A DNA stretch of 64,000 nucleotides from Ulota crispa (lineage: Eukaryota; Streptophyta; Bryopsida; Orthotrichales; Orthotrichaceae), in NCBI GenBank assembly GCA_963920765.1, contig OY987242.1, positions 11,434,789 through 11,498,788 on the forward strand. The letters run 5' to 3'. Positions 19,619-50,499 of this stretch are shown here, in pieces; within the stretch, counting starts at the first letter, position 1; the number at the start of each line of letters is the position of its first letter. The notes under the pieces are model-generated. The model did no database searches. It was not told where the DNA came from and saw only the letters and a list, made by a program, of their open reading frames with translations. The position numbers and the translations under genes were made by a program.

Positions 19619-20072
19619 GGGGATCATATGTGTACCACACCCTTTCAGCTATTCTACCACATCCTAGGATAAATTTTAGATTTCTACCATCAAATAGTTG
19701 AATTTGAGAATTTAGAATTTAGAATTGGACTTAGAGATCTTGATTTTGTCTAGAACCGTAAAAAAAGGTTGTAATTGAACAATACTTTGATGAAAAAGCT
19801 TAGCTTGGAGAAAAAGTATTACTTTTATTTTTGTTTACAAAAAAGGATAAGCTTTTTTATTGGGTGTTGTTTAATTAGAACCTTTTTATGATTCTAAACT
19901 AAAGCACGGTCTCTAAGTCCAAATTTGAATTCCAAATTCTCAAATTCAACTTTTGGATGGTAGAAATCTAAAATTTACTTTGGGGGTATGATAGAATAGC
20001 TGAAAAGGTATGGTATAATAGCTAAAAGGGTGTGGTAGAATAGCTGAAAGGGTGTGGTAGAATAGCTGAAAG
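19619..20072. mobile_element. hairpin MITE, 3' end cut by a CACTA-like insertion
   Basis: Starts GGGGATCATATGTGTACCAC and folds back on itself around 19830-19870 (AAGCTTAGCTTGG, AAAGGATAAGCTTTT). The family recurs at 21030-21441 and 43313-43713. The right arm ends in 22-bp repeats (GGTGTGGTAGAATAGCTGAAAG) and stops at the CACTA-like element. Its missing terminus is found, inverted, at 23757-23910. Confidence 0.75.
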
Positions 20073-21029
20073 CACTAGTAGAAAATTAGCACAAAATCAA
20101 CAGAATTTCAACCAAAAACTGTTGATTTTTTTTGTGAATTTGGTCAAGTTGATTTGGATACTTTTCTATTGATTTTCTGTTGATTATTTACAGTTTTCTG
20201 TTAATTTTTTGTTGATTTCTATTACGTATTTTATGTTGTTCAATTCTATTTCTTTTCAATTTTAAATTTTTATTTTCATACAATTTATTTTTATTTTATG
20301 AAAAAGTGAACTAGGAAAGGAGACGAGCAGCTGCCTAAGCCCCGGACAACTGTCCCAACCGCCGGGCAGCTGGCCCAAACCTCGGGCAGCTGCACTAACC
20401 GCCAAGCAGCTGCCCGAACCCCCGGGCAGCTGCCGGCAGTGGGGTTTGAACCCCCCACCTCTATCCTCTCACTCCACAACTCTATCACATTCTCAAAAAC
20501 CACTAAAGAATGTGCAAATGCACATACTCACATTGGTATCTTGATTCTATTTGTACATTAAATGTTCATGTCTTTAATAATCCAGTAAACTTTGGAGGCT
20601 ACTTCTGCCCATTCAAGGACTTTTTTTCAAAAAACTTAGAACTAAGAAAAGTTGGTAAATGTATTTTACTTTCACCTCCAACAATTTTTTTTGGATTTCA
20701 ATCTTTTTATCAAAAGTTATGAGCTAAAATCAGAGAAGGTGTTTAGAAACTTTAAATAAATTGTTTATTTCCATCCTTTTGATTTTGTTTATAAATTTTT
20801 TTTGGAATTCACAAATTTCATAAGGATTGTTGCAGGCAAAGGTTGGATTCATTAATAATTATTATTTAGTGCTAGTTTTTTTTGTAAAAAGAATCTTATT
20901 TTGTTAAAATAGCCTCCATAGTTTGATAGCTTCAAATAACATGAAGTTGTGAAAAGTTACGGAATTAAAACCTTGCAATTATAAAATCAAAATTCTATTG
21001 ACTTTTGAATAGTTTTGGATATTTTTTAA

Positions 21030-21441
21030 GGGCATTAATATGTGAACCACACCCTTTGAACTACTGTACCACACCCCCAAGGTAAAGTTCAGATTTCTAC
21101 CATCAAAAATTTGAGTTTGAGAATTTTGAATTCAAATTTGGACTTAGAGACCATGATATTGTCTAGGACCATAAAAAAGGTTGCAAATCAACAACACCCA
21201 ATGAAAAAGCTTATCTTTTTTTACAAACAAAAGTAAAATTAATAATTTTCTCCCTAACTAAACTTTTTCATTGGGTGTTGTTGAATTGCAACTTTTTTTA
21301 TGGTCCTAGACAATATCATGGTCTCTAAGTCCAAATCTGAATTCAAAATTTTCAAATTCAACTTTTTGATGGTAGAAATCTAAAATTTACCTCGTGGTGT
21401 GGTATAGTAATTGGAAGGATGTGGTACACATATCAATTCCC
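21030..21441. mobile_element. hairpin MITE nested in CACTA copy 1
   Basis: Ends GGGCATTAATATGTGAACCAC and inverse of GGGAATTGATATGTGTACCAC, with a palindromic centre (AAAAAGCTTATC). Same family as 19619 and 43313. TAA precedes it (21027-21029); the right flank is ATC, so its duplication is not intact. Confidence 0.65.
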
Positions 21442-22309
21442 ATCTTTTAAAGCTTATAAAAATATTTTATAAGATTGTTTTATTTTAATTCATTTGGTTA
21501 GCAATAGAAGGAAAAATACTAAAAATACCCTTTAAGTCTTTCAAAATATCAAGTTTACGCCAAAAATATGTGAAACATAAAAAGTAGTCCTTATTTTTTG
21601 TAGGAATATCAATTATACTCCTATTATTTTGGAAAATTAATAAAAAGACTCTTCTATTTTGAAGTGTTAAATACATCCTTGTGTTATTTGAAATGTAAAA
21701 ATCACCTTTGGTTTCTTGTAAGAATTTGCATTAAACTATATACTTGGTTACCATATAACACAAAGATATTTTTGGTACTTTTAATCCTTAAGGGACATAT
21801 ATGATTTCTTCAAAGAAGTGAAGAGCATCATTTATATTTGTTTGTAAAGAAATTTTGGTATTTAAAACAACAAAATGTTGTACTTTTTATATAAAATTTT
21901 GTTGAATTAGTGAAGTTGTGTCCAAAAGTTTCCAGATCAATAGAAACTATTGAGTTTTTTGTTATTGTGGTCATGTTTTTACTTGACTTTAAAGGCTGCT
22001 AATTTTAAATCTTACCAAATTGTGAAAAGTAAAGAAAATAAAATCAGTCAATGTACACTCAAACTTCTAAAAGATTTTTTTTTTTTTGAAAACTTCTTTT
22101 ATTTTTTAAAACTTCTTTTATTTTTTAAAACTTCAAAGCATTTTAATGAGGTCCAAAAAGATTCTAGAAAGATTTCAAAAACAAACCTAAACTATTGTGA
22201 TAGTTTTTTGAAAGTATTTTGATGAATTACAAAAAGATTCCTAAAGGACTCTAATTCAGTCTAAGAGATTCTATTTCTATAAATATTTTGAAGTACTTTA
22301 ACAAATTTC

Positions 22310-22880
22310 ATAAAGATTTTAAAAAGATTCTCAAAGATTTCAAAAAGGTTCTTGGAAATTCTCAGAGATTCTCAAAGATTTTTTGAATTTCCAAAAAAAT
22401 TCTCAAAAGATTTCCAAAGATTCTCAAAGATTTCAAAAAGGTTCTTGAAAATTCTCAGAGATTCTCAAAGATTTTTTGAATTTCCAAAAAAAATCTCAAA
22501 AGATTTCCAAAGATTCTCAAAGATTCTTAAAGATTCTCAAAGCTTCTCAAAGCTTCCAGGAAGATTCCAAGATTATTCATAAACATTTTCAAAAATTCTC
22601 AAAAAAAATCAGAATTCCTAGAACATTTCCAAAGATTCTCAAAGATTTTCAATTGTTCTCAAACATTCTCAAAGATTCCAAAAAAACTTGAAAAGATTCC
22701 CAAAGATTTCCAAAGATTCTCAAAGATTCCTAAAAGATTCTCAAAGATTCTAAAATCTTGAAAAGATTTTTAAATATTCTTAAAAATCCTGAAAAGATTC
22801 TCAGTGATTCCCAAAAGATTCTTGAAGATTCTTAAAGATTCACAAAAATTTCCCAAAAGATCTTCAAAAGATTCCAAATT
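22310..22880 (+). repeat. degenerate 10-14-bp subterminal tandem array
   Basis: Dozens of variants of TCTCAAAGATT(C/T) with spacer variation, confined to one end of the CACTA-like element. Subterminal short repeats are typical of CACTA elements. The inverse array lies in copy 2 at about 25434-26004. Confidence 0.8.
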
Positions 22881-23032
22881 TTTTGTTGATTTAGATAATG
22901 GTGTTCAAATCAACAGAACGTATTTAGTTTTTTACAGAATTCTGTTAAATTAGTCAATTAGCGTGGGCAAGTGCCAAAATCAACAAGAAACTATTGGTTT
23001 TCTGTTGTTTTGGAAGGAGTTTTCTACTAGTG

Positions 23033-23910
23033 TTAATCTTGCAATTGGTGGGGATGTTCATTCTGAATTTTTGGGACAATGTACTTGTGCAAGTCAACCA
23101 AAGGATCCTACGGTTGAATTTGTTAAAAAATAAGTTTCAATGAAGATTTTGACCCTGGTATAGGGACTAGTATTTCAAAACAGTTTTGGGCCTCTAAACA
23201 CAAAAGAATTTTAGGGGTTAATAGAGCAACCTTTATAGTGTAGCATCATTCACAAACTCTCTAAATGTGTTTGGAAAGTTTCCTAAATATAGGTCATTTG
23301 AGTTATGCTAATTGAGATAGAATTTAAGTACTATACCGCGATGTATACTAATTTAACCAAAGTTATTAAGAACTACATTAAGCACAATTGGTAAGTTTGT
23401 TTATTTCTTGAATTAGCGTGAGTTAGCAAAGTTAAAGACACAGTAATTGAAATAACATGTGTAACAATATATCAATAAAAAACAAAAATAAAAACAAAAA
23501 TCCCCTCTTAAAATCCCCTCTTAAATTTGAGTACAAGTTTTAAAAAATGGATTTAAAATGATTTTGGATGTTTTATTTTTTATTTGACCGATATGCAACT
23601 CGAAAAAACATTTATATTTTCTAAAAATATGCACATTCAGAACAACAAACAGAAAATAAAGCACCTAAACAGATGATGTCACAAGCTACTAACATTTTTT
23701 TAATAAAGAGTGTTAGTCACTCAGAACATACCTTTCACTTCTAGCAATTTTCAATTGGGGATTGATATGTGTACCACACCCTTTCAGCTATTCTACCACA
23801 CCCTTTCAGCTATTCTACCACACCCTTTCAGCTATTCTACCACACCCTTTCAGCTATTCTACCACACCACCTATTCTACCACACCCTTTCAGCTATTCTA
23901 CCACACCCTT
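23033..23910. other. 878-bp spacer between the inverted CACTA copies
   Basis: Starts TTAATCTTGC and ends CCACACCCTT, with no gene. Its right end (23757-23910) is the missing terminus of the MITE at 19619, carrying 22-bp repeats. A TTTTAGGGGTTAA sequence (to about 23220) resembles a lone TTAA-family end. The segment appears to be inverted relative to its ancestral orientation (see findings). Confidence 0.75.
23770..23910 (+). repeat. 22-bp minisatellite, about six units
   Basis: Unit CCACACCCTTTCAGCTATTCTA, with one shortened unit (CCACACCACCTATTCTA). Repeated as 25141-25281 in the duplicated contig end; the inverse unit lies at 20010-20072. Confidence 0.9.
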
Positions 23911-24154
23911 CACTAGTAGAAAACTCCTTCCAAAACAACAGAAAACCAATAGTTTCTTGTTGATTTTGGCACTTGCCCACGCTAATTGACTAATTTAACA
24001 GAATTCTGTAAAAAACTAAATACGTTCTGTTGATTTGAACACCATTATCTAAATCAACAAAAAATTTGGAATCTTTTGAAGATCTTTTGGGAAATTTTTG
24101 TGAATCTTTAAGAATCTTCAAGAATCTTTTGGGAATCACTGAGAATCTTTTCAG
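23911..24154 (-). mobile_element. start of CACTA copy 2, cut by the assembly gap
   Basis: Begins CACTAGTAGAAAACTCC and is the reverse complement of 22789-23032. It breaks off at the N run; the same sequence is repeated in full from 25282. Confidence 0.85.
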
Positions 24155-24354
24155 NNNNNNNNNNNNNNNNNNNNNNNNNNNNNNNNNNNNNNNNNNNNNN
24201 NNNNNNNNNNNNNNNNNNNNNNNNNNNNNNNNNNNNNNNNNNNNNNNNNNNNNNNNNNNNNNNNNNNNNNNNNNNNNNNNNNNNNNNNNNNNNNNNNNNN
24301 NNNNNNNNNNNNNNNNNNNNNNNNNNNNNNNNNNNNNNNNNNNNNNNNNNNNNN
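24155..24354. other. assembly gap of 200 Ns
   Basis: Exactly 200 Ns. The 1,172 bp to the left (22983-24154) and the 1,171 bp to the right (24355-25525) are the same sequence in the same orientation, with one single-base deletion noticed near 24924. The flanks are best explained as overlapping contig ends that were not merged. Confidence 0.95.
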
Positions 24355-25281
24355 ACAAGAAACTATTGGTTTTCTGTTGTTTTGGAAGGAGTTTTCTACT
24401 AGTGTTAATCTTGCAATTGGTGGGGATGTTCATTCTGAATTTTTGGGACAATGTACTTGTGCAAGTCAACCAAAGGATCCTACGGTTGAATTTGTTAAAA
24501 AATAAGTTTCAATGAAGATTTTGACCCTGGTATAGGGACTAGTATTTCAAAACAGTTTTGGGCCTCTAAACACAAAAGAATTTTAGGGGTTAATAGAGCA
24601 ACCTTTATAGTGTAGCATCATTCACAAACTCTCTAAATGTGTTTGGAAAGTTTCCTAAATATAGGTCATTTGAGTTATGCTAATTGAGATAGAATTTAAG
24701 TACTATACCGCGATGTATACTAATTTAACCAAAGTTATTAAGAACTACATTAAGCACAATTGGTAAGTTTGTTTATTTCTTGAATTAGCGTGAGTTAGCA
24801 AAGTTAAAGACACAGTAATTGAAATAACATGTGTAACAATATATCAATAAAAAACAAAAATAAAAACAAAAATCCCCTCTTAAAATCCCCTCTTAAATTT
24901 GAGTACAAGTTTTAAAAAATGGATTAAAATGATTTTGGATGTTTTATTTTTTATTTGACCGATATGCAACTCGAAAAAACATTTATATTTTCTAAAAATA
25001 TGCACATTCAGAACAACAAACAGAAAATAAAGCACCTAAACAGATGATGTCACAAGCTACTAACATTTTTTTAATAAAGAGTGTTAGTCACTCAGAACAT
25101 ACCTTTCACTTCTAGCAATTTTCAATTGGGGATTGATATGTGTACCACACCCTTTCAGCTATTCTACCACACCCTTTCAGCTATTCTACCACACCCTTTC
25201 AGCTATTCTACCACACCCTTTCAGCTATTCTACCACACCACCTATTCTACCACACCCTTTCAGCTATTCTACCACACCCTT
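24355..25281. repeat. redundant second copy of the CACTA copy 1 tip and spacer
   Basis: 24355-24404 repeats the last 50 bp of CACTA copy 1, and 24405-25281 repeats the spacer 23033-23910. Probably an assembly duplication rather than genomic DNA. Confidence 0.85.
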
Positions 25282-28243
25282 CACTAGTAGAAAACTCCTT
25301 CCAAAACAACAGAAAACCAATAGTTTCTTGTTGATTTTGGCACTTGCCCACGCTAATTGACTAATTTAACAGAATTCTGTAAAAAACTAAATACGTTCTG
25401 TTGATTTGAACACCATTATCTAAATCAACAAAAAATTTGGAATCTTTTGAAGATCTTTTGGGAAATTTTTGTGAATCTTTAAGAATCTTCAAGAATCTTT
25501 TGGGAATCACTGAGAATCTTTTCAGGATTTTTAAGAATATTTAAAAATCTTTTCAAGATTTTAGAATCTTTGAGAATCTTTTAGGAATCTTTGAGAATCT
25601 TTGGAAATCTTTGGGAATCTTTTCAAGTTTTTTTGGAATCTTTGAGAATGTTTGAGAACAATTGAAAATCTTTGAGAATCTTTGGAAATGTTCTAGGAAT
25701 TCTGATTTTTTTTGAGAATTTTTGAAAATGTTTATGAATAATCTTGGAATCTTCCTGGAAGCTTTGAGAAGCTTTGAGAATCTTTAAGAATCTTTGAGAA
25801 TCTTTGGAAATCTTTTGAGATTTTTTTTGGAAATTCAAAAAATCTTTGAGAATCTCTGAGAATTTTCAAGAACCTTTTTGAAATCTTTGAGAATCTTTGG
25901 AAATCTTTTGAGAATTTTTTTGGAAATTCAAAAAATCTTTGAGAATCTCTGAGAATTTCCAAGAACCTTTTTGAAATCTTTGAGAATCTTTTTAAAATCT
26001 TTATGAAATTTGTTAAAGTACTTCAAAATATTTATAGAAATAGAATCTCTTAGACTGAATTAGAGTCCTTTAGGAATCTTTTTGTAATTCATCAAAATAC
26101 TTTCAAAAAACTATCACAATAGTTTAGGTTTGTTTTTGAAATCTTTCTAGAATCTTTTTGGACCTCATTAAAATGCTTTGAAGTTTTAAAAAATAAAAGA
26201 AGTTTTAAAAAATAAAAGAAGTTTTCAAAAAAAAAAAAATCTTTTAGAAGTTTGAGTGTACATTGACTGATTTTATTTTCTTTACTTTTCACAATTTGGT
26301 AAGATTTAAAATTAGCAGCCTTTAAAGTCAAGTAAAAACATGACCACAATAACAAAAAACTCAATAGTTTCTATTGATCTGGAAACTTTTGGACACAACT
26401 TCACTAATTCAACAAAATTTTATATAAAAAGTACAACATTTTGTTGTTTTAAATACCAAAATTTCTTTACAAACAAATATAAATGATGCTCTTCACTTCT
26501 TTGAAGAAATCATATATGTCCCTTAAGGATTAAAAGTACCAAAAATATCTTTGTGTTATATGGTAACCAAGTATATAGTTTAATGCAAATTCTTACAAGA
26601 AACCAAAGGTGATTTTTACATTTCAAATAACACAAGGATGTATTTAACACTTCAAAATAGAAGAGTCTTTTTATTAATTTTCCAAAATAATAGGAGTATA
26701 ATTGATATTCCTACAAAAAATAAGGACTACTTTTTATGTTTCACATATTTTTGGCGTAAACTTGATATTTTGAAAGACTTAAAGGGTATTTTTAGTATTT
26801 TTCCTTCTATTGCTAACCAAATGAATTAAAATAAAACAATCTTATAAAATATTTTTATAAGCTTTAAAAGATGGGAATTGATATGTGTACCACATCCTTC
26901 CAATTACTATACCACACCACGAGGTAAATTTTAGATTTCTACCATCAAAAAGTTGAATTTGAAAATTTTGAATTCAGATTTGGACTTAGAGACCATGATA
27001 TTGTCTAGGACCATAAAAAAAGTTGCAATTCAACAACACCCAATGAAAAAGTTTAGTTAGGGAGAAAATTATTAATTTTACTTTTGTTTGTAAAAAAAGA
27101 TAAGCTTTTTCATTGGGTGTTGTTGATTTGCAACCTTTTTTATGGTCCTAGACAATATCATGGTCTCTAAGTCCAAATTTGAATTCAAAATTCTCAAACT
27201 CAAATTTTTGATGGTAGAAATCTGAACTTTACCTTGGGGGTGTGGTACAGTAGTTCAAAGGGTGTGGTTCACATATTAATGCCCTTAAAAAATATCCAAA
27301 ACTATTCAAAAGTCAATAGAATTTTGATTTTATAATTGCAAGGTTTTAATTCCGTAACTTTTCACAACTTCATGTTATTTGAAGCTATCAAACTATGGAG
27401 GCTATTTTAACAAAATAAGATTCTTTTTACAAAAAAAACTAGCACTAAATAATAATTATTAATGAATCCAACCTTTGCCTGCAACAATCCTTATGAAATT
27501 TGTGAATTCCAAAAAAAATTTATAAACAAAATCAAAAGGATGGAAATAAACAATTTATTTAAAGTTTCTAAACACCTTCTCTGATTTTAGCTCATAACTT
27601 TTGATAAAAAGATTGAAATCCAAAAAAAATTGTTGGAGGTGAAAGTAAAATACATTTACCAACTTTTCTTAGTTCTAAGTTTTTTGAAAAAAAGTCCTTG
27701 AATGGGCAGAAGTAGCCTCCAAAGTTTACTGGATTATTAAAGACATGAACATTTAATGTACAAATAGAATCAAGATACCAATGTGAGTATGTGCATTTGC
27801 ACATTCTTTAGTGGTTTTTGAGAATGTGATAGAGTTGTGGAGTGAGAGGATAGAGGTGGGGGGTTCAAACCCCACTGCCGGCAGCTGCCCGGGGGTTCGG
27901 GCAGCTGCTTGGCGGTTAGTGCAGCTGCCCGAGGTTTGGGCCAGCTGCCCGGCGGTTGGGACAGTTGTCCGGGGCTTAGGCAGCTGCTCGTCTCCTTTCC
28001 TAGTTCACTTTTTCATAAAATAAAAATAAATTGTATGAAAATAAAAATTTAAAATTGAAAAGAAATAGAATTGAACAACATAAAATACGTAATAGAAATC
28101 AACAAAAAATTAACAGAAAACTGTAAATAATCAACAGAAAATCAATAGAAAAGTATCCAAATCAACTTGACCAAATTCACAAAAAAAATCAACAGTTTTT
28201 GGTTGAAATTCTGTTGATTTTGTGCTAATTTTTTCTACAAGTA
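25282..28243 (-). mobile_element. CACTA-like non-autonomous element, copy 2 (inverted)
   Basis: Reverse complement of 20073-23032, apparently identical throughout: position x in copy 1 pairs with 48314-x, and every reading frame compared is the same in both. Only the outer tip differs: it ends TTTTTTCTACAAGTA instead of TTTTCTACTAGTG. It includes the inverted nested MITE (26873-27284) and the AAAGATTCTC-type array. The outer flank is TAA (28244-28246). Confidence 0.85.
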
Positions 28244-28246
28244 TAA

Positions 28247-29238
28247 TATGCCAAAACTTCAAAATGTAGGTTTTTCTAATCCCTCCAAAAGGTGAAGTTT
28301 TGATTTTCAAACTTTTTAGAAAAAAACACACATGTTTTATTTTGTATGCAATTTTTGCAATATGTGAGGAAATGGGTTGATAGCATATATAAAAATATTT
28401 AACCAAAAGAAACTTTGGATTCATTTTTACAAAAATTGTAAAGTGATAGGTATTGATGAATGAAATATATAACTAATCTGCTAATAAGTTTTGGAAGAAT
28501 TTGAAAATTGTTAATCCCAATGGTGAGAATGCTCTAACACAAAAGTAGTAACTTTGATTTTCATTTTCATTTGTAATTTTTCAAAATTGAGAGTAAAAGA
28601 TAACCTTATATGTTTTTTCTACCCTCTTCCTACCTTCATTGCCCACAAAAGAAAATTCCTTGTAACTCTTACCTCATTATTTGGAATTGAGTGATTCAAT
28701 TTTTTTTGAGTAGGTATTATTCTGTACAATTCTATAAAAAATTTGAAAAAAAATTAGAATATAATTTTTGCTACCTAGTTTGACATTGAAATTGTAAAAA
28801 CCTTCTAACTTTTACAATAGTTATCTAAATGACATGAAATAAAGCTTCACATGTAGATTATGATGAGTAGCATCCATCTTAAAAATTTCATGAAAAAATT
28901 CCAAATTATGAAGTCAATAGAGCCTGTCCAAGTTCTCATAAAACCCGAAATGGGTTCCTTGGGCCTCTAGGGGTTAATCAATCACCTATCTTTGGGATGA
29001 CAAAAGAATGTGGCCAAAGTACTATTTTAAATATAATGTCGTGAGCATGTCACATTCTTACACAAGTTACACAAGATTCACCCAAATTAATGTGAAGAAG
29101 TCTCCCACTATGAACGTCTAGCACTAGTAATAAGTTGTGAAATAGCAGTTGTAGCAAAAGTAGATTCACTTAAATTAGTATGAGCAGCAATTCTACATGT
29201 TACGGTCTAAACAAGTCACTTATTTGAGAGCCGTCATT
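28247..29238. other. intergenic sequence with a lone TTAA-family end
   Basis: GGGCCTCTAGGGG at about 28961-28973 followed by TTAA (28974-28977) matches the right end of the TTAA elements, but no left end was found upstream. No gene was seen. Confidence 0.4.
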
Positions 29239-41145: not shown

Positions 41146-42431
41146 CTCCTAAAGGACCATTTTCCCTTCAAGGGCAAACGGGACTTTGGGCAAGTACCCA
41201 TAGTTGAACTAGTTTGTCTGATTTTTTGAAACTTTTATGGAAGATGGGGAATTTAAATATCTATGAGGACATTTATTTTTTCTTCATTTTGACATTTGAC
41301 AAAGAAGTTATGCATGAGTTTATCAAGATTTGAGGAGAATTGCCCATCCGGGCAGCCCAAAAAACTTCTTTCAGATTCACATTTTTTTGAAATTGGTTCT
41401 TTAGATTCTTTTATATGTGGGAAGCTTTGAATTATTTGGTTTCAATCAACAAGATCAAAGTTATCAGGAGTTTTTGTTTGTAGGCAATTGTGGATTTTCT
41501 ACTCTAAAATAAACTTTGAAGTCCTTTATATTACTCAATTTTCAATATTTCAGGAAAAAAAATTAAACGAAAGGAAGCAGATTGTTTATTACAACATTAT
41601 AACAACTTGGATTTGCATTTTTCATTTCAATAATTAAATTCTTAACAATTTAGTGTTTTGACTCATTCTCTACTTCTTTTTACTTAAGGTAGCAGCATCC
41701 ATAAGCGTTGCGTCCCCATGGCCGCCACCTGACAATGGCAAGGCTAATCAATAAAAAACAAACGGTTGTGGATGACTGAGTGATGGTTATGGGTGATGAA
41801 GTGATGATTGTGGGTGACTAGTATGAGGTTTTGAGTACCCATCTCACTATTTAAGAACCAACAACCCTTGTGATTAGCATCTCTTACACATGGTTCTTAC
41901 AATTTCAGTGATTTTGGACTTTGAAAATTCTTTGTGAACAAATGCTTGCAATTGAAACCTTGAAATTGATGCTAATATTTTTGGTTTCCACTTCCTAACT
42001 TACAATATTTTTTTCAAAGTTAGTCAATTGTTTTACCTACTCCAAAACCCTTATTTCCACGCTTCTGGGTGCGCCTACCTTAGTATTTTTTCCCATGTGT
42101 TGTGTAGTTCCAATTGAATTGAAAATTCTCCCACATGTACCTAACTTGATCTCCTACATGGTAATTTAAAAGCACAACTTAGAGTAGAGCAATTTTTTTC
42201 ATGTAAGAGTGGTCAAAGGCTTCTGAGATTTACAGACATCACGGAAAAAAAATTCCCTTCACTTCAGATGTACATATATCCTTCCTCTCCATCTAGAATG
42301 ACCCAATCTTTTCCCATAAGTACCTCTTCTAGTGTAAGGCAAGATCTTATGGTTGGATTTCCAAAAAAAAAAAACCTAAAAATGTCAGTTTTCAATAATT
42401 TTGGCAAAAAAAGGGCTTGGTCCTTTAGGGT
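41146..42431. mobile_element. TTAA-flanked element, copy H, with nested insertion
   Basis: Ends CTCCTAAAGGACCA and inverse of ACCCTAAAGGACCAAGCCC; exact TTAA at 41142-41145 and 42432-42435. Closely related to 3892-4833, for example TTTTGAAACTTTTATGGAAG and GATCTTATGGTTGGATTTCC-like blocks. It is interrupted by the TAAGGTAG repeat at 41685-42082; without it the length is about 890 bp, matching the 942 bp of copy A. Confidence 0.8.
41685..42082. mobile_element. TAAGGTAG-ended MITE, copy 2, inside copy H
   Basis: Inverted ends TAAGGTAGCAGCATCCATAA and TAAGGTAGGCGCACCCAGAA; 398 bp. Nearly the same as 50101-50499. Flanks are ACT and GTA, so no clean target duplication is visible here. Confidence 0.75.
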
Positions 42432-48557: not shown

Positions 48558-50100
48558 GCTTTCACTCCATTCTATTATGTCATTTAATTTGGCTTCCATA
48601 CCACCCAAACCCATTCCCAATCATTTAAGCTATTGCAAGACAATACATTAGAGCAACAACATGGCACAATTTTTTTTGGTGGCTTCATACAAAATATTGC
48701 AACACAGTTTTTTTTAGAATTTTTCACGCAAAATTGAATTATATACAAATTCTGAAGTGCATATAGTGTTCTGAACCCATAGACAAGCACTAGATTCTCC
48801 TAACCCCAATCATAGCCAAAACAATTCTTGCTCGCCAATTTTTTTTTGGGACACATGTCATAATCTCATTTGTCTTAATGTTCAAAAGGGAAAAATACGC
48901 ATTCCAAGGCTTGGAAATAGGCGTTGGTATTGCACACCCTATACTGGTTGGGTTTGGATCCGTGGTTGGGAATAGGTGGTTCTACCTTACAGTACAGTGG
49001 TGCTTCGTTAACGTCAACCTTTGTAATGGAAACAATTGGATATTATCACACTCCCACTCTCCTTTTTATCAAAATGTGTATTAGGAGTCCGGCTAACCCA
49101 TTAAGGTCTGTGGTCAATTTTGGGTTGGGCAAGGCCTTTTTTGGTATTTTGGAAAAACTCATACTAACAAAAAATATGAATGCATTTCAATTGTACGGGT
49201 CGCAATGTCATGCATGGTTTATGGGTATGCATCATTTTTTTACGTTTGATTTTGTTGGCAGCTAGGTTTAAATGTGCATGTATGCGTTTTTGTACAAATT
49301 TGGTGGTCTCTACGGTGGTGGATCATGTTTCTTTATGGATTGTTCTTTCTGGACCACGTGGCAATTTTTTATGGTGATGATGGGTTTAGGGGAAACCTAG
49401 ATTCTTGGGAATGCATAAAAGTACTCAATCTTTACCGATTATGACCATTTTTCTACATTCATTCCTGTATTTTGGCAACCAGTACTTCTTGAGTTTTTCC
49501 AATGCCCTAATCACGTGGTAGCTCAACTAAATTTGATTTTTGTTCCAAGCTATGGGGCTCCTAATTGCCTACACCCATCTCCTTTGCTCCATCCTCAAAT
49601 TCCCTAACATGCTCTCCCTACCAACTAAAAAGAGTCAAAATCGACCAGAAACTAGTCAACTAGACCTTAATGGGTTAAGGTCAAGTACTTGTGTACAATC
49701 AATCTTGACTTTTTGTCAACACGCATTTTGACTCATCCACTTTAATTAGTGAACCAAAAACACGTGTGAGAAAGCACCTTCAAAGTTGCAACCACCAAAA
49801 TTAGGGGAAATTGGATACAATTAACATTTTTTTAGCTCAAAATGGTGGCCTTATCCGAGCACCACTATAAAGTAGGAGCACCCATAAACGTCAAACTAAG
49901 GGTTTTGAACATGATGACTCTTAATAAACATTTAGCAAATTGTAGGATCCTTTTAGGAATAGAAAAAAGATGAGTTTGCAATCTTGAATGTAATATTTGG
50001 ATACTATGAGAATAAGTTATGAATTTTTAAAGAGCAAACTGCCATTGCACCCATAATTACATTTAAAATTTCATGTTCACATTTTGTACAACCTTGTCAT
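48558..50100. other. intergenic sequence, no gene recognised
   Basis: Frames up to 113 codons around 48.9-49.4 kb (plus) overlap one another in different phases and match no family known to me. Confidence 0.4.
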
Positions 50101-50499
50101 TAAGGTAGCAACATGCACAAGTGTTGCGTCCCCATGCCCATCACCTGACAATGGCAGGGCTAATCAAGAAAAAAACATATGGTTGTGAGTGAGTGAGTGA
50201 TGGTTATGGGTGATGAAGTGATGTTTGTGGGTGACTAGTATGAGGTTTTGAGTACCCATCTCACTATTTAAGAACCAACAACCCTTGTGATTAGCATCTC
50301 TTACACATGGTTCCTACAATTATGGTGATTTTGGACTTTGAAAATTCTTTGTGAACAAATGCTTGCAATTGAAACCTTGAAATTGATGCTAATATTTTTG
50401 GTTTCCGCTTCCTAACTTACAATATTTTTTGCAAAGTTAGTCAATTGTTTTACCTACTCCAAAACCCTTATTTCCACGCTTATAGGTGCGCCTACCTTA
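50101..50499. mobile_element. TAAGGTAG-ended MITE, copy 3, upstream of the reductase gene
   Basis: Inverted ends TAAGGTAGCAACATGCACAA and TAAGGTAGGCGCACCTATAA; CAT flanks both sides (50098-50100 and 50500-50502), a possible 3-bp target duplication. It ends about 390 bp before the start codon of the reductase gene and may contribute to its promoter. Confidence 0.75.

What the first reader, a model, noticed from the sequence alone, without database searches (positions are those of the whole stretch)
20070..28246. Spacer between two inverted CACTA elements has flipped: target duplications match only after inversion
Copy 1 is flanked by AAG (left) and TTA (right). Copy 2 is flanked by CTT (inner) and TAA (outer). 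Neither pair matches. If the 878-bp spacer is inverted, copy 1 becomes AAG/AAG and copy 2 becomes TAA/TAA, both perfect 3-bp CACTA target duplications. The same inversion restores the MITE at 19619: its broken right arm continues into 23910-23757 read backwards, finishing with the inverse of GGGGATTGATATGTGTACC. So two independent insertions were followed by recombination between the 2.96-kb inverted copies, or the assembly chose the wrong orientation of a flippable segment.
Basis: partly seen in the sequence, partly recalled or inferred. Interest (0 to 1): 0.85.

Follow-up and report, generated by a model that had tools for sequence, protein, structure and literature searches.

The report
DNA segment flipped between inverted transposons
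Two near-identical jumping genes lying in opposite directions in a plant-like genome have recombined and turned around the short stretch of DNA between them, a known kind of rearrangement that is unusually well documented here and appears at a second place in the same genome.

Summary
Confirmed. Two inverted non-autonomous CACTA elements (20073-23032, 25282-28243) have mismatched 3-bp flanks that match once the spacer is turned (AAG/AAG, TAA/TAA). New evidence: (1) spacer edge and right flank are two parts of one dispersed repeat, and 28 of 28 fetched paralogues read straight across the turned junction; (2) turning restores a MITE, its 22-bp array register and a 9-bp target duplication (8 of 9 bases). 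A 200-N gap with a 1.17-kb unmerged overlap prints the spacer twice; both contigs agree on orientation. Best mechanism: homologous exchange between the inverted copies with gene conversion: arms identical over 2,951 bp, next fetched relative 93%. The signature recurs: another inverted pair (10.2-kb spacer) has swapped TSDs, and seven paralogous segments carry both unturned junctions; a third inverted pair shows conversion without exchange. These three stand far outside the other 432 pairs. The mechanism is known (Galileo in Drosophila; palindrome conversion). Unsettled: whether both orientations coexist in the sample; an assembly orientation error at this one locus is unlikely but not excluded.

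The parts
19619..20072 (+). Left part of a MITE (GGGGAT... end, 22-bp repeat array) interrupted by CACTA copy 1 after AAG
   Evidence: Family copies L069-L072 continue through the array to the matching terminus
20070..20072 (+). AAG: target site duplication of copy 1, left half
20073..23032 (+). Copy 1, non-autonomous CACTA element, 2,960 bp, termini CACTAGTAG...CTACTAGTG
   Evidence: no ORF over 90 aa
23033..23910 (-). Spacer, 878 bp, turned relative to the state at insertion
   Evidence: 28 of 28 fetched paralogues of its edge join the other flank; MITE restored on turning
23033..23223 (-). Part of dispersed repeat R (about 0.92 kb, ends TTAACCCCTA..TAGGGGTTAA) cut off from its remainder at 28247
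23757..23910 (-). Right part of the MITE begun at 19619, now on the far side of the spacer
23911..24154 (-). First 244 bp of copy 2 as printed at the end of the left contig
   Evidence: (I2)
24155..24354 (.). 200-N assembly gap
24355..25525 (.). Second printing of 22983-24154 (end of copy 1, spacer 24405-25281, start of copy 2): read as unmerged contig overlap
   Evidence: 1,171 vs 1,172 bp, one 1-base indel
25282..28243 (-). Copy 2, same CACTA family, 2,962 bp, outer end altered (TACTTGTAGAAAAAA)
   Evidence: this end variant occurs once in the genome at up to one mismatch
28244..28246 (+). TAA: target site duplication of copy 2, outer half (partner TTA at 23033-23035)
28247..28978 (+). Remainder of repeat R, continuous with 23223..23033 reversed in the 28 fetched paralogues

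Best explanation
Two members of one non-autonomous CACTA family inserted independently about 0.9 kb apart in opposite orientation: copy 1 into a MITE (TSD AAG), copy 2 into a dispersed repeat R (TSD TAA). The host's homologous recombination then paired the copies within or between chromatids. A crossover inside the paired copies turned the spacer and swapped the inner target duplications, and gene conversion overwrote one copy with the other over 2,951 bp, leaving only the outermost bases of copy 2 different. Shown: the turned state in the assembly, the swapped duplications, the identity pattern, and the same pattern at a second pair. Inferred: that crossover and conversion belong to the same or repeated events, and that host recombination rather than a transposase did it.
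For: Swapped TSDs: of 28 combinations among the 8 TSD-mismatched copies, only this pair and L019/L025 match crosswise; 22 of 30 fetched copies have matching 3-bp TSDs. Empty sites: 28 of 28 fetched R paralogues read through the turned junction, 27 of 28 without a gap in the 44-bp comparison. MITE array register and 9-bp TSD restored. Conversion: arms 0 differences in 2,951 bp, against 93.05% to the nearest other fetched copy; outer end 2 substitutions and a 2-bp indel. Second pair L019/L025: TSDs TGA/TTA and TTA/TGA; 2 differences in a 2,081-bp central tract vs 54 in 703 bp outside, 0 of 20,000 shuffles reach this; seven segments elsewhere carry both turned junctions straight-through, 10.5-10.8 kb end to end and in the predicted order. 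Third pair L013/L026: 2 in 2,559 vs 23 in 395, 0 of 20,000 shuffles, TSD of L013 intact. Longest run with at most 2 differences: 2,961, 2,560 and 2,082 bp in these three pairs, at most 594 in the other 432.
Against: No reads were available; the locus holds an assembly gap, and 2.95-kb identical arms are where orientation errors happen. The conversion tract would end about 10 bp from the outer terminus and be longer than plant conversion tracts usually reported (recalled), so several events or another cause of identity may be involved. Pair 1 by itself cannot show a tract boundary statistically: it has only 2 substitutions and the shuffle test is uninformative (20,000 of 20,000 reach the observed value). 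No direct-orientation neighbours of this family were examined as a control.
Confidence: 0.85

Rival explanations
1. Assembly error: the molecule still has the original orientation, and the assembler turned the spacer inside the 2.95-kb identical arms next to the gap.
For: 200-N gap and an unmerged 1.17-kb overlap lie inside the structure; identical arms permit the error.
Against: Both contigs that meet at the gap carry the spacer in the same orientation relative to their own unique flank, though they may share reads. The other swapped pair, L019/L025, has no N in the fetched stretches (the 10.2-kb spacer itself was fetched only at its edges) and its ends differ by 7.7%, so it is much harder to mis-orient. 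Arm identity itself needs conversion or a recent common origin, and conversion is the process that also gives inversions.
Confidence: 0.1
2. Transposase-driven (alternative) transposition turned the segment.
For: Linked transposon ends can produce inversions; six maize cases by Ac ends are described in PMC8225341 (abstract start, section 15 read). The genome has many Transposase_21 matches (150 of 150 scored candidates, of 596 first-look candidates).
Against: PMC8225341 states that such inversions carry a new TSD, whereas exchange between inverted copies leaves inverted, usually non-identical TSDs: the latter is seen at both pairs. It does not explain the homogenised centres.
Confidence: 0.02
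3. Local transposition: copy 2 is a recent local hop of copy 1, so they are identical by descent, and a later crossover turned the spacer, without gene conversion. (This differs from the best explanation only in the cause of arm identity; the odds given for the rivals are not exclusive.)
For: Explains identity and needs only one exchange; the R family also has two near-identical inverted neighbour pairs, where conversion is not proven.
Against: The outer end of copy 2 differs by 2 substitutions and 2 bp within 11 bp while 2,951 bp are identical; in pairs L019/L025 and L013/L026 the ends are 7.7% and 5.8% diverged around an almost identical centre, which descent alone does not give.
Confidence: 0.1
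4. The double printing is a real duplication: copy 1 - spacer - copy 2 - copy 1 - spacer - copy 2 with most of the middle hidden in the gap. (Compatible with the turned spacer.)
For: The two printings differ by one base in a run of T.
Against: 1,171 of 1,172 bases shared at the two edges of a round 200-N gap is what unmerged contig ends look like; no other support.
Confidence: 0.07

Closest known systems
Galileo transposon inversions of Drosophila buzzatii (Delprat et al. 2009, PMC2775673; passages read)
   Same: Two oppositely oriented copies of one DNA transposon at both breakpoints with exchanged target site duplications; single target copies in unturned chromosomes; ectopic recombination inferred
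   Different: There a natural inversion in an animal, chimeric copies, non-inverted chromosomes sequenced; here 0.9- and 10.2-kb spacers in a plant-like genome, CACTA elements, unturned state seen in paralogous repeats, arms homogenised
Human Y palindrome P6 arm-to-arm conversion with rare inversions (Hallast et al. 2013, PMC3723533; passages read)
   Same: Inverted arms kept alike by conversion (mean minimum tract 2,068 bp), with occasional crossover that turns the centre
   Different: P6 is a large palindrome of the human Y; here the arms are independently inserted transposons with their own target duplications, so an odd number of exchanges can be read from the flanks
Maize Ac/Ds alternative-transposition inversions (PMC8225341; section 15 read, passages)
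   Same: Inversions in a plant next to linked DNA transposons
   Different: New TSD and transposase required there; here swapped old TSDs
Rice pan-genome inversion index (PMC10030860; passages read)
   Same: Transposons, two CACTA families among 17 listed, found at breakpoints of plant inversions
   Different: Catalogue of breakpoints; the passages read do not report swapped TSDs or conversion between inverted CACTA copies

Membership tests
CACTA (En/Spm) DNA transposon, non-autonomous | Termini CACTA...TAGTG as short inverted repeats | tested here: met
   CACTAGTAGAAAA...TTTTCTACTAGTG in copy 1; 19 of 30 fetched copies have both CACTAGTAG and CTACTAGTG exactly, 23 the first and 26 the second; copy 2 outer end altered
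CACTA (En/Spm) DNA transposon, non-autonomous | 3-bp target site duplication | tested here: met
   22 of 30 fetched copies
CACTA (En/Spm) DNA transposon, non-autonomous | Subterminal short repeats | tested here: met
   Units of about 10 bp (AGATTCTCAA-like) at 22.3-22.9 kb, towards the 3' end (D3); not compared with other CACTA families
CACTA (En/Spm) DNA transposon, non-autonomous | Transposase supplied by a related autonomous element | tested here: inconclusive
   No ORF over 90 aa in copy 1; at least 150 Transposase_21 matches in the genome, none linked here to these termini
Inversion by ectopic recombination between inverted transposons | Homologous copies in opposite orientation at both ends | tested here: met
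Inversion by ectopic recombination between inverted transposons | Target site duplications exchanged between the copies | tested here: met
   AAG/TTA and TTA/AAG in element sense
Inversion by ectopic recombination between inverted transposons | Single unturned target sites elsewhere | tested here: met
   28 of 28 fetched R paralogues; these are paralogues, not alleles
Inversion by ectopic recombination between inverted transposons | Chimeric copies | not testable with these tools
   Arms are identical, so the crossover point leaves no trace
Inversion by ectopic recombination between inverted transposons | Unturned alleles in relatives | not testable with these tools
   No relatives held for this genome (stated)
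Alternative (reversed-ends) transposition inversion | Newly made TSD at the breakpoints | tested here: not met
   Inner and outer flanks match crosswise, no new duplication
MITE at 19619, Mutator-like | 9-bp TSD | tested here: met
   8 of 9 bases in the restored copy; 8 or 9 of 9 in each of the four fetched family copies L069-L072, two of them only with a one-base shift at the G-run; read by eye; the superfamily name is recalled and was not tested further

The most novel reading that the evidence does not exclude
Closely spaced inverted copies of any moderately old transposon family in this genome act as small self-maintaining palindromes: they repeatedly exchange, are homogenised in their centres, and toggle the DNA between them, so that both orientations coexist in the plant and broke this assembly at the gap.
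Probability: 0.35. Interest if true: 0.68.

Novelty: new member of a known kind. Interest (0 to 1): 0.52.

Why it matters
Swapped target duplications plus conversion tracts let one reference genome reveal both conversion and crossover between neighbouring inverted transposons, without population data. Three CACTA pairs (two with exchange, one without) are too few for a rate, but they suggest that crossover need not be rare relative to conversion at such pairs; a genome-wide count would make this measurable. Such small turned segments are also easily mistaken for assembly errors or missed.

Tried and rejected
Segmental inverted duplication as the source of the two CACTA copies: rejected, each has its own flanking repeat and target site. 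Present-day orientation as the original one: rejected, 0 of 28 fetched R paralogues support it. L013/L026 as a third flip: rejected, L013 has TAC/TAC; L026 has ATC/ATG, one base off. L011, L018, L032 (mismatched TSDs): no crosswise partner among the 8 mismatched copies, left unexplained. A direct-orientation neighbour pair of this family as a control was not obtained; the only direct control is a different 0.45-kb repeat in the window, 41630-42082 and 50053-50499, 90.5% identical.

Literature: searches, of which only listings (titles, abstract starts) were seen except for the four papers named under Closest known systems. For CACTA in particular: 29 papers, 20 listed, nearly all on chloroplast genomes; the maize paper PMC2686159 in that list was not opened; 54 papers, 15 listed; none. 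One search found the phrase 'exchanged target site duplications' in two papers, both on Drosophila. This is weak evidence that no CACTA case is in print, in this library only. The organism was not identified.
Full report
The window lies in a 274.8-Mb genome held as 157 contigs; the ten contigs C1-C10 are 15.8-41.4 Mb.

What is there. Copy 1 is 20073-23032 and copy 2 is 25282-28243 on the other strand; 2,951 bp of arm are identical. Copy 1 reads CACTAGTAG...CTACTAGTG. Copy 2 has the same inner end, but its outer end reads TACTTGTAGAAAAAA in element sense, a variant found once in the genome with up to one mismatch. Between the copies the window prints spacer, 244 bp of copy 2, 200 N, 50 bp of copy 1, and the spacer again. 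The two sides of the gap share 1,172/1,171 bp with a single 1-base indel. I read this as two contig ends that overlap and were not merged; a real duplication hidden by the gap is not excluded. Each contig joins its own flank to the spacer in the same orientation.

The flanks. Element-sense flanks are AAG/TTA for copy 1 and TTA/AAG for copy 2. Of 30 fetched family members (30 of 40 scored places, from 4,193 first-look candidates) 22 have matching 3-bp flanks and 8 do not. Among the 28 possible pairs of those 8, only two match crosswise: this pair and L019/L025. By base composition one such double match has a chance of about 3.6e-4.

Independent test 1, repeat R. The right flank from 28247 and the spacer edge 23033-23223 are each repeated many times in the genome. 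In 28 of 28 fetched paralogues (28 of the 38 scored places outside this locus) the reverse complement of the right flank runs directly into the spacer edge, and in 27 of 28 without any gap across a 44-bp comparison, with one target triplet (mostly TTG, also TTA, TCA and others). This is the arrangement predicted for a turned spacer and contradicts today's order. R is about 0.92 kb with TTAACCCCTA/TAGGGGTTAA ends.

Independent test 2, the MITE. The element broken at 20072 continues, after turning the spacer, into 23907-23757 reversed. The 22-bp unit stays in register and the terminus ...CACATATCAATCCCC appears. Four family copies, chosen by me for carrying the array from the places, show the same build. 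Reading their flanks by eye, each of the four has target duplications matching at 8 or 9 of 9 bases, two of them (L069, L072) only with a one-base shift at the G-run, and the restored copy has AACTGAAAA/AATTGAAAA. Turning the spacer therefore brings back the match of three target duplications and the continuity of two repeats at once.

Is it recombination? Family members differ from each other by a median of 6.2% (median identity 93.8%, 435 pairs). Among the 40 scored places, three pairs lie within 20 kb of each other, all inverted: this one (0.9 kb spacer), L026/L013 on C6 (6.0 kb) and L019/L025 on C3 (10.2 kb). They rank 1, 2 and 4 of 435 by identity, and by longest run with at most two differences they measure 2,961, 2,560 and 2,082 bp against at most 594 bp in the other 432 pairs. 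In L019/L025, 2 differences fall in the 2,081-bp centre and 54 in the 703 bp outside; in L013/L026, 2 in 2,559 and 23 in 395; no shuffle of 20,000 reached either. For the window pair the shuffle test says nothing, because there are only two substitutions; its evidence is that both, and a 2-bp indel, lie in the outermost bases, while the nearest other fetched copy is 93.05% identical. A similar but unlinked pair, L030/L021 (98.7%), has its differences spread along the element. L012, 47 kb from copy 2, is only 92.5% identical. This is the pattern of gene conversion between near inverted neighbours. No direct-orientation neighbours of the family were among the fetched copies, so orientation itself was not tested.

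Second inversion. L019 has TGA/TTA and L025 has TTA/TGA. I joined the flanks as they would have been before an inversion and searched the genome with the central 209 and 205 nt. The TGA junction is matched over 200 or more of 209 positions in 13 of 21 places (73-89% identity); two of the other eight are the C3 locus itself, split at the insertions, and six are partial. The TTA junction is matched over all 205 positions at 96-98% in seven of 35 places; two are the split C3 locus and the remaining 26 are weaker (69-82%) or partial. Seven segments (C8 21.11, C1 39.44, C1 39.54, C4 25.61, C8 1.07, C9 19.09, C9 1.02 Mb) carry both junctions, 10.5-10.8 kb end to end, in the order and orientation predicted. 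The interior of the C3 spacer was not read. L013/L026 has an intact TSD on L013, so there conversion left the spacer as it was, or exchanges were even in number.

Second transposon family. Two inverted neighbour pairs of R (C3 13.48 Mb, C9 15.89 Mb) are 99.67% and 99.54% identical, the top two of 378 pairs with the next at 95.1% (27 fetched copies and the window's own, L046 dropped because of an internal insertion), and homology between the partners stops at the ends of R. Here recent local insertion would explain as much as conversion, and the palindromic TTAA ends give no crosswise test.

Mechanism. Swapped old duplications without a new one point to homologous exchange and not to transposase action; PMC8225341 states this distinction (section 15), and PMC2775673 uses exchanged TSDs together with chimeric copies as evidence for Galileo inversions (passages). 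Human Y palindrome P6 has conversion tracts with a mean minimum of 2,068 bp and rare inversions (passages of PMC3723533), so kilobase tracts between inverted arms are documented. With a recalled rate of 7e-9 per site and generation, zero differences in 2,951 bp put the last homogenisation of the window pair within roughly 73,000 generations (95%; rough).

What is not settled. No reads and no relatives are available. Whether the turned form is fixed, heterozygous or mixed cannot be told. The gap inside the structure would fit a mixture, but also plain repeat ambiguity. That 200 N is a scaffolder's default is recalled, not tested.

Novelty. The mechanism is known. New here is a doubly documented plant-like case with non-autonomous CACTA elements, where both crossover and conversion can be read from one assembly. 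I saw no such CACTA case in the listings of searches of one open-access library, which is weak evidence of absence.

Noticed in passing
24155-24354 with 22983-24154 and 24355-25525: 200-N gap with 1.17 kb of the same sequence on both sides: probably an unmerged contig overlap that prints the spacer twice
   Followed up: yes
L019 (C3:33994379-33997414) and L025 (C3:34007630-34010426): Second inverted CACTA pair with swapped TSDs and a turned 10.2-kb spacer
   Followed up: yes
L049/L056 (C3 13.48 Mb) and L041/L045 (C9 15.89 Mb): Inverted neighbours of repeat R are 99.5-99.7% identical while the other 376 of 378 pairs are at most 95.1%
   Followed up: partly
C8 21.11, C4 25.61, C9 19.09, C9 1.02, C8 1.07, C1 39.44 and 39.54, C3 33.99 Mb: Eight paralogous segments of at least 10 kb; four of them end within 65 kb of a contig end, the two on C1 are inverted to each other
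   Followed up: no
19619-20072 and 23757-23910; L069-L072: MITE family whose right arm carries a variable number of 22-bp repeats, a minisatellite inside a MITE
   Followed up: partly
C1:39511536-39519746 and C1:25103481-25105683: Head-to-head CACTA ends 2.1-2.2 kb apart, candidates for further flips
   Followed up: no
L011, L018, L032: CACTA copies with non-matching 3-bp flanks and no crosswise partner among the fetched copies
   Followed up: no
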